Shown here piece after piece: positions 18,639-20,263 of a DNA stretch of 64,000 bases. A model generated the notes under the pieces. That model ran no database searches and was not told the DNA's origin. It worked only from the letters and a program-made list of their open reading frames with translations. Source of the DNA: Terriglobia bacterium. GTDB lineage: Bacteria; Acidobacteriota; Terriglobia; JAIQFV01. The position numbers were made by a program, and so were the translations under genes. Positions within the stretch are counted from its first letter, which is position 1. Every line of letters starts with the position of its first letter. Location of the stretch: contig JAQUPQ010000012.1 in the NCBI GenBank assembly GCA_028716525.1, forward strand, positions 29,307 to 93,306, written 5' to 3'.

Positions 18639-19033
18639 GCGGGCACCTCGTAGTCTATCCTGCCTTCGCCGCCGCTCCCATTGTACCGACGTTCGGAGTA
18701 GGCCGTCGATACCTGCAACTCACCACCCGTTCCAGTAGCCTCCGTTGTCCCAACTCGTATCCGATTGTCGAACGCAAGCGCCTCTTGCATGAGGTGTCCG
18801 GCCAATGCGGAGCGCGCCGTTTTCCCCACCTTCGTGTGCTTGAGCAGATGCAAGCGAGAGCCACGGTGCATGTCCCATGGGAGTTCCCCGCGTTTCGTTC
18901 CAACTTCCAACGTGAGGTCCATTTCGAGCAACCGAGTCCCTGTAGCCTGCTTCAAGTCGGTTGATGCGAAGCCAAACGGCATCGCCAATCCAACACCAAA
19001 CCGTCCTTCATCGTCGCCGGAAGTGGTTCTCAT
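18635..19033 (-). CDS. GPW/gp25-like baseplate wedge protein
   Basis: 132 aa, 'GLAMPFGFAS...TRLLEMDLTLEVGTKRGELPWDMHRGSRL', immediately before gpJ as in other myophages. Confidence 0.75.
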   Translation of the reverse strand: MRTTSGDDEGRFGVGLAMPFGFASTDLKQATGTRLLEMDLTLEVGTKRGELPWDMHRGSRLHLLKHTKVGKTARSALAGHLMQEALAFDNRIRVGTTEATGTGGELQVSTAYSERRYNGSGGEGRIDYEVPA

Positions 19034-20208
19034 TCTGACGAGACCTCCGCGCCTTCGACTCTCGCGTCTCCAGTCGCCGACCTGCGCCCCAGGTCGTAGA
19101 TGTTGCGCGCAGCATTCTCATCCCGGTCCATGACCAAGCCACATGCCGCGCAGTAGTGCGTTCGGTCGCGCAATGTCTTTCTCACCACGCTTCCACATCC
19201 CGAACATCTCTGGCTGGTACCCCTCGGGTTCACGCGCACGAACGGCAGCCCAGCTTCTTCCGCTTTGGCCGCGAGGTGCGTCCCGAACATCGTCCAGCCC
19301 GAATCCATGATGCCGCGCCGCAGACCACGCGCACCTTTCTTTGTCATTTCATCCGGCTCGTGCTCCGTACTCGACATCTCCTGAACGTTCAACTTCTCAA
19401 CCGCAAAACCGTCGTATCGTTTCACTAGAGTTGCCACCGTCTGATGAATGAAGTTGCGACGGCGGTTTGCGATTTTCTCGTGCGCGCGAGCGAGAACCAG
19501 TTTTGCCTTCCCTCGGTTCCGCGAACCCTTCCGCTTGTGACTCACTGATTGGCCAGACTCGCGTAGCTTATCGATACTCTTCCGCAAAAAACGCGGATGC
19601 TCAATCTGCGTGCCGTCTGACATCGTCGCAAATGTCCGCAGTCCAACGTCGATACCGACGCCGGTACTCGACTTCTTCAACGTCGGCGCGGGACCGATGT
19701 CCACCAGAAAATGCGCCCACCATCGAGTTGCGCCCCTCACAATCCGCAGTCCCTTGATCTCACCTTCACGGTAGATAGTGTTCCGCATCTGGAAAACAAT
19801 TGGGTCCTTCCTAACATTCAAAACGAGTTTCTTCCCGTCGATATGCCAATCCTGCGTTGTGAATGTCAGAGTGTCGAAACGCTCCCAACTTCGGAATCGT
19901 GGGAATCCAGGTTTCTCCCCGCGCTTGACGCGTCGAAAAAATCCATGAAATGCCTTATCTAGACGGTGCAGGACTGTCACCCGCGTCATCTGCGCAGGCA
20001 GATTTCTGTAGTCATCGTCGTCGGACCGCAACTGCGTCAGTTCTTTACATTGTTCATAGAACGAAAGTGAAACACGCTGTCGCTGCCACGCTTCCCGTCT
20101 CTGCTGGAGGGCCGCGTTGTACAACGCGCAGCATAGTCCGAGCACCCTCCGCAACTTTGCTTCCTGCTTTGGAGCCCGGCCCAACTTCACTTTGCACGCT
20201 CGAATCAT
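19030..20208 (-). mobile_element. tnpB: TnpB (IS200/IS605-type RNA-guided nuclease ORF), no tnpA, intact catalytic motifs
   Basis: 392 aa; RuvC-I 'GIDVGLRTFA', RuvC-II 'GFAVEKLNV', zinc finger 'CSGCGS...HYCAACG', RuvC-III 'MDRDENAARNI'; stop overlaps gp25 ATG (ATGA). Confidence 0.95.
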
Positions 20209-20247: not shown

Positions 20248-20263
20248 CTCCCTTGTATCGACC

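What the first reader, a model, noticed from the sequence alone, without database searches (positions are those of the whole stretch)
18950..19200. Possible omegaRNA whose scaffold lies in the tnpB 3' end and whose guide would be the gp25 5' coding sequence (homing hypothesis)
In IS200/IS605 systems the omegaRNA overlaps the tnpB 3' end and the guide is the flank just past the right end. Given the ATGA junction, that flank would be gp25 (ATGAGAACCACTTCCGG...). Such a guide would match the empty-site allele of co-infecting relatives, making TnpB an RNA-guided homing nuclease acting on a baseplate gene. The AT-rich leader holds possible TAM-like sequence (e.g. TTTTTATG).
Basis: inference. Interest (0 to 1): 0.75.

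Follow-up and report, generated by a model that had tools for sequence, protein, structure and literature searches.

The report
Phage TnpB element rewrites baseplate-gene start
A small mobile element carrying an RNA-guided DNA-cutting enzyme (TnpB) has inserted between two tail genes of a bacterial virus, and its conserved right end, which also looks like the end of the enzyme's guide RNA, now supplies the start codon of the next tail gene; whether it cuts and converts virus copies that lack it is plausible but not shown.

Summary
In detail: tnpB (19030-20208, minus) overlaps the stop/start of a baseplate gp25-like gene by ATGA. Two related phage contigs (82-85% nt identity) and one distant relative lack tnpB at this site, so it is an insertion of about 1.23 kb. 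Two other phage contigs carry 64% and 70% identical TnpBs. Comparing the three shows (i) a guide-RNA-like scaffold in the tnpB 3' end: a 7-bp hairpin that covaries (three compensatory changes) and unusually conserved synonymous sites; (ii) a conserved right-end motif, GTCAGAATGAGAACCA, identical in the window and L127. This motif contains gp25's start codon, so gp25 codons 1-4 are element sequence. The guide would therefore start near 19022 (TTCCGGCGACGATG...), not at ATGAGAACC. The proposed TAM TTTTTATG lies inside the element. Against the two known empty sites the first 12 guide bases match only 6-7/12 at the conservation-defined boundary (10-11/12 only if the scaffold runs 5 nt further), so homing into these relatives is not predicted, nor excluded. 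The canonical right end of related TnpBs (hairpin + GTCAC) is absent; instead weak terminal inverted repeats and a ribosome-site-plus-ATG are present. Verdict: real, a divergent phage TnpB subfamily; homing unproven.

The parts
19030..20208 (-). tnpB, 392 aa RNA-guided nuclease homologue; RuvC D187, E271, D363 and CxxC...CxxC intact
   Evidence: Pfam; PDB match to ISDra2 TnpB 8BF8/8H1J, E 1.7e-39; motif check and dN 0.22 vs dS 2.2 against L231
19023..20249 (-). inserted TnpB element (core extent; each end uncertain by about 3-6 nt; homology to empty relatives ends at 20258 and resumes at 19017)
   Evidence: empty sites in L028 and L029; conserved ends with L127 and L231
20232..20252 (-). left end GGGAGTAGTTCTAATTTTTAT, imperfect inverted copy of the right end (GGAAGTGGTTCTCATTCTGAC)
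   Evidence: 15/21 matches, 0 of 500 shuffles reach it; same register in L127 (13/17, p 0.018) and L231 (12/17, p 0.04)
19024..19039 (-). right-end motif GTCAGAATGAGAACCA, containing the tnpB stop and the gp25 start codon
   Evidence: identical 16-mer 12 nt after the tnpB stop of L127; diverged form GTGAAATGGGAACTAT in L231
19023..19101 (-). presumed omegaRNA scaffold (tnpB 3' codons plus right end)
   Evidence: 13 of 15 identical-residue codons unchanged vs 45% upstream, P 0.001, WIN vs L231; best local CM hit 19040-19101, 6.2 bits
19078..19096 (-). hairpin P1: CGACCTG-GGGCG-CAGGTCG
   Evidence: 7/7 pairs in three sequences, three compensatory changes; same position as P1 of the wider TnpB clade; 7/7 in about 2% of synonymous recodings
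19044..19048 (-). GGAGG, Shine-Dalgarno-like, 10 nt before the right-end ATG; conserved in L127 and L231
   Evidence: sequence
19003..19022 (-). presumed guide TTCCGGCGACGATGAAGGAC (start uncertain, 19022 to 19017)
   Evidence: conservation between the three right ends drops after GAACYAY; match to empty alleles scored
18635..19033 (-). gp25-like baseplate gene whose start codon and codons 2-4 are element-derived (MRTTSGDDEGRFGV vs MSDEEGRFGV in relatives)
20264..21052 (-). upstream phage gene (262 aa, 96-98% identical in the empty relatives), intact

Best explanation
This is a phage-borne, tnpA-less TnpB element inserted at the start codon of a gp25-like baseplate gene. Its mRNA 3' end probably doubles as a guide RNA: hairpin P1 and the following tnpB 3' codons form the scaffold, the scaffold ends at the right-end motif GTCAGAATGAGAACCAC, and gp25 sequence from about 19022 onward is the guide. 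The right end also carries GGAGG and an in-frame ATG, so gp25 is translated from the element, coupled to the tnpB stop. Shown by comparison: the insertion, the element-derived gp25 start, the conserved scaffold and end. Inferred: that the RNA exists and is bound, that TnpB cuts, and that it keeps or spreads the element at this site (homing-like retention, as reported for IS200/IS605 TnpBs).
For: Empty sites in two 82-85% relatives and in a distant one. Identical right-end 16-mer in an unrelated phage context, L127, diverged copy in L231. P1 covariation. Synonymous conservation at the tnpB 3' end. P1 at the position of the wider clade's omegaRNA hairpin, itself strongly covarying. Intact catalytic residues and purifying selection. 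Right-end ATG in frame with the downstream gene in both the window and L231. Literature: TnpB makes its guide RNA from its own mRNA and Dra2TnpB uses about 12 nt of guide (PMC10278001); TnpB acts as a gene drive against IS-free plasmids (PMC11870625).
Against: Only three family members. The wider-clade covariance model gives the window 6.2 bits (E 0.51), while it finds most held-out relatives. Folding energy is near shuffles. No transposase in the element. At the conservation-defined boundary the guide matches known empty alleles 6-7/12. Left-end similarity between window and L127 alone is not significant. No RNA or activity data.
Confidence: 0.6

Rival explanations
1. The insertion lies just upstream of ATGAG: the scaffold ends at ..TCGTCAG (a changed GTCAC end), gp25's ATG is its own, and a separate 12-nt in-frame insertion changed its first codons. 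The guide would then be AATGAGAACC....
For: GTCAC ends the scaffold of most relatives, and the window has TCGTCAG at about the right distance; relatives' gp25 also begins ATGAG.
Against: ATGAGAACCA follows GTCAGA identically in L127, in a non-coding context in another phage, and in diverged form in L231; the left end carries its inverted copy.
Confidence: 0.1
2. A degenerate or domesticated TnpB: the protein is kept, but the guide RNA is lost or no longer reprogrammed by the flank, and the gene serves another phage role.
For: No canonical P3 hairpin or GTCAC; weak covariance score shared with tree neighbours L033, L047 and L102; solo gene with no tnpA beside it.
Against: P1 covaries and synonymous sites at the 3' end are conserved between phages with unrelated flanks; the nuclease site is intact.
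Confidence: 0.2
3. Passive cargo: a TnpB element insertion tolerated because its right end happens to restore a start codon, with no homing or other role in the phage. (It shares the anatomy of the best explanation and differs only in the inferred function.)
For: Absent from both close relatives; the guide does not clearly match their alleles.
Against: The right-end ATG is in frame with the downstream gene in a second phage as well, and the family is under purifying selection; both are also compatible with selfish spread.
Confidence: 0.3

Closest known systems
IS200/IS605 family, IS1341-type (solo tnpB) elements and their omegaRNA
   Same: TnpB with RuvC triad and zinc ribbon; scaffold overlapping the tnpB 3' end; hairpin P1 at the same place; guide taken from the right flank
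   Different: canonical terminal hairpin and GTCAC right end not found; no left-end hairpin above shuffles; weak terminal inverted repeats; the right end contains a ribosome-site and start codon used by the next gene
ISDra2 TnpB (8BF8, 8H1J)
   Same: best natural PDB match over residues 12-371, RuvC and zinc-ribbon regions aligned
   Different: distant relative (phmmer E 1.7e-39); a longer loop before the last RuvC part in the window; different end sequences
Fanzor1/2 in transposons with terminal inverted repeats
   Same: inverted repeats that form part of the guide-RNA scaffold, as reported in PMC10711439
   Different: eukaryotic proteins; here prokaryotic TnpB, with weak repeats and no target duplication seen
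TldR, phage-encoded TnpB-derived RNA-guided repressors (PMC13418256)
   Same: phage-borne TnpB relative
   Different: catalytic triad intact here; TldRs are nuclease-dead (own knowledge)
TnpB gene drive in plasmids (PMC11870625)
   Same: the retention and spread logic proposed here
   Different: shown for IS200/IS605 in plasmids, not tested in phages

Membership tests
TnpB RNA-guided nuclease | OrfB_IS605 and TNB domains, RuvC D/E/D, zinc ribbon | tested here: met
TnpB RNA-guided nuclease | structured RNA overlapping the tnpB 3' end | tested here: inconclusive
   P1 covariation and synonymous conservation positive; folding energy and Rfam negative
TnpB RNA-guided nuclease | guide-dependent DNA cleavage | not testable with these tools
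   needs biochemistry
IS200/IS605 (IS1341-type) element | right end with terminal hairpin and GTCAC as in related elements | tested here: not met
   R1 finds it in most held-out relatives; window 6.2 bits, and not among the hits of the whole-window search
IS200/IS605 (IS1341-type) element | subterminal left-end hairpin | tested here: not met
   DNA fold z 0.23
IS200/IS605 (IS1341-type) element | no terminal inverted repeats | tested here: inconclusive
   inverted similarity of ends in three elements: 0 of 500 shuffles, p 0.018, p 0.04
IS200/IS605 (IS1341-type) element | clean insertion 3' of a fixed TAM, without duplication or deletion | tested here: inconclusive
   flanks differ from both empty alleles by a few bases
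IS200/IS605 (IS1341-type) element | Y1 transposase TnpA in the element (optional for the solo type) | tested here: not met
   none beside tnpB; 10 Y1_Tnp hits elsewhere in the assembly
Homing endonuclease-like element | interrupts the sequence that its own nuclease recognises | tested here: inconclusive
   6-11 of 12 guide-core matches to empties, depending on a boundary shift of up to 5 nt
TldR | loss of RuvC catalytic residues | tested here: not met

The most novel reading that the evidence does not exclude
A subfamily of phage TnpB elements whose right end is a three-way overlap: end of the transposon, end of the guide-RNA scaffold, and a portable translation start (GGAGG plus an in-frame ATG) that re-starts the invaded phage gene, letting the element sit at start codons of structural genes without killing the phage and spread there by RNA-guided conversion of empty copies.
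Probability: 0.25. Interest if true: 0.72.

Novelty: new variant of a known kind. Interest (0 to 1): 0.5.

Why it matters
TnpB retention and drive have been studied in chromosomes and plasmids. A TnpB element fixed inside a phage tail operon, with naturally empty relatives and a defined guide, would let RNA-guided homing between phages be tested directly. The overlap of transposon end, guide-RNA end and start codon would explain how such an element tolerates landing in an essential gene.

Tried and rejected
Rfam scan: no family. Folding energy as evidence: near shuffles. Covariance model of the wider clade: good on most held-out relatives, weak in the window, so not used as proof. Guide at AATGAGAACC (insertion upstream of ATGAG): rejected after L127. 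GTCAGAATGAGAACCA alone in IMG/VR: 14 loci, only L127 next to a tnpB, the others taken as chance. Right-end 17-mer elsewhere in the assembly: nothing better than 3 mismatches. gp25 in INPHARED: no match. Host-phylum genomes: no close relative of the phage. Natural start of the L231 downstream gene: no homologue found. TTTTTATG as TAM: it lies inside the insertion.

Full report
WHERE IT IS. The window is part of contig C12 of a 4.2-Mb, 104-contig assembly. Its minus strand reads as a contractile-tail phage gene cluster: a late-control-D-like protein, a 262-aa protein, tnpB, a gp25-like protein, baseplate J and others. Two IMG/VR contigs of 93.5 and 86.3 kb carry the same cluster at 82-85% nucleotide identity. 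The assembly holds a single TnpB.

THE OBSERVATION. tnpB ends with TGA overlapping the ATG of gp25 (ATGA, 19033-19030). The protein matches OrfB_IS605, the Cas12f1-like TNB domain and the OrfB HTH, and ISDra2 TnpB by sequence. D187, E271, D363 and both CxxC pairs are intact.

THE INSERTION. In both close relatives the 262-aa gene and gp25 are adjacent. Homology stops at window 20258 and resumes at 19017. A distant relative (L030, J protein 52% identical) has the same tnpB-free order. So tnpB is a lineage-specific insertion of about 1.23 kb. The proposed TAM TTTTTATG is inside it.

THE WIDER CLADE. TnpBs at 35-44% identity share a scaffold end: hairpin P1, a short P2, GAGAAG, hairpin P3, then GTCAC. 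Its pairs covary strongly (80% of cells paired against 62% shuffled; slid versions 34-55%). A covariance model of it finds most held-out relatives. In the window it gives 6.2 bits, E 0.51 over 1.7 kb, at the expected place with P1 and P2 but without P3, and this hit does not appear in the whole-window list. The model was built from loci chosen for having that end, so it says only that the window differs. A tree puts the window with L102, L033 and L047 (96/92 support, long branches); all three are also negative with the model.

THE CLOSE FAMILY. A scan with that sub-clade found L127 (64% identical TnpB, phage contig with a terminase-like gene downstream), and a second scan found L231 (70%, a 212-kb phage contig). 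Three comparisons follow. First, GTCAGAATGAGAACCA (window 19039-19024) is identical in L127, where it lies 12 nt after the tnpB stop in other surroundings; L231 has GTGAAATGGGAACTAT. Conservation drops after GAACYAY, and that drop is the published criterion for the scaffold-guide boundary (PMC10278001). So the right end is near 19023, inside the gp25 reading frame, and gp25 codons 1-4 are element sequence. Second, P1 pairs 7/7 in all three, with three compensatory changes in L127 (17 of 500 shuffles reach it, so with three sequences this is moderate). Synonymous sites are conserved at the tnpB 3' end between the window and L231 (13/15 unchanged against 45% upstream, P 0.001); the same test is not significant against L127. 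About 2% of synonymous recodings would also form P1. Third, left and right ends are imperfect inverted copies in one register in all three elements (15/21, 13/17, 12/17). Left ends compared directly between window and L127 are not significant (same call), so the inverted repeats are suggestive only.

THE START CODON. The right end carries GGAGG (19048-19044) 10 nt before the ATG. GGAGG is conserved in all three. In the window and in L231 the right-end ATG is in frame with the downstream phage gene; in L127 it is not used that way. The gp25 of relatives begins MSDEEGRFGV; here it begins MRTTSGDDEGRFGV. The ancestral start codon at the site is gone, so the element's ATG is the likely start.

THE GUIDE AND HOMING. 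With the boundary at 19023 the guide is TTCCGGCGACGATGAAGGAC. Its first 12 nt match L029 at 7 and L028 at 6 positions. If the scaffold ran five bases further the figures are 11 and 10. Dra2TnpB reads about 12 nt of guide (PMC10278001). Homing into these two relatives is therefore not predicted at the best boundary, but is not excluded. Retention at the element's own excision junction, or conversion of closer relatives, is compatible. TnpB gene drive is demonstrated for plasmids (PMC11870625). Nothing here measures RNA, cutting or spread.

FAMILY. It is a TnpB by every sequence test. It fails tested features of the IS200/IS605 elements around it (terminal hairpin with GTCAC, left-end hairpin), so it is not filed as a standard IS200/IS605 element, though it probably descends from one and may work like one. 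It is not a TldR, since the triad is intact.

VERDICT. A real, divergent phage TnpB subfamily (new variant of a known kind). The finding's guide and TAM need correction; its homing claim is open.

Noticed in passing
L033:1532-3304 (-): A 590-aa ORF beside the nearest GTDB TnpB begins like a Cas9/IscB-type protein (GVDFGEGAGGIAVV..., Arg-rich bridge-like stretch), in an Acidobacteria MAG; frame may be broken near its 3' part.
   Followed up: no
window 63154-63951 (-): ORF made of near-identical repeats of GGGLNCSGADTKASFPKLTTV, at the end of the window.
   Followed up: no
own assembly, 10 places (e.g. C83:7580-7936): Ten Y1_Tnp (PF01797) hits in open frames of 138-249 aa, none near tnpB; sizes suggest REP-associated transposases, possibly a trans source of TnpA.
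   Followed up: no
IMGVR_UViG_3300031952_000001 (L231, L193): One 212-kb phage contig carries two different TnpBs, 70% and 38% identical to the window's.
   Followed up: no
L127:287-321: Left end holds two tandem copies of a GTGGTTYTCAA-type repeat.
   Followed up: no
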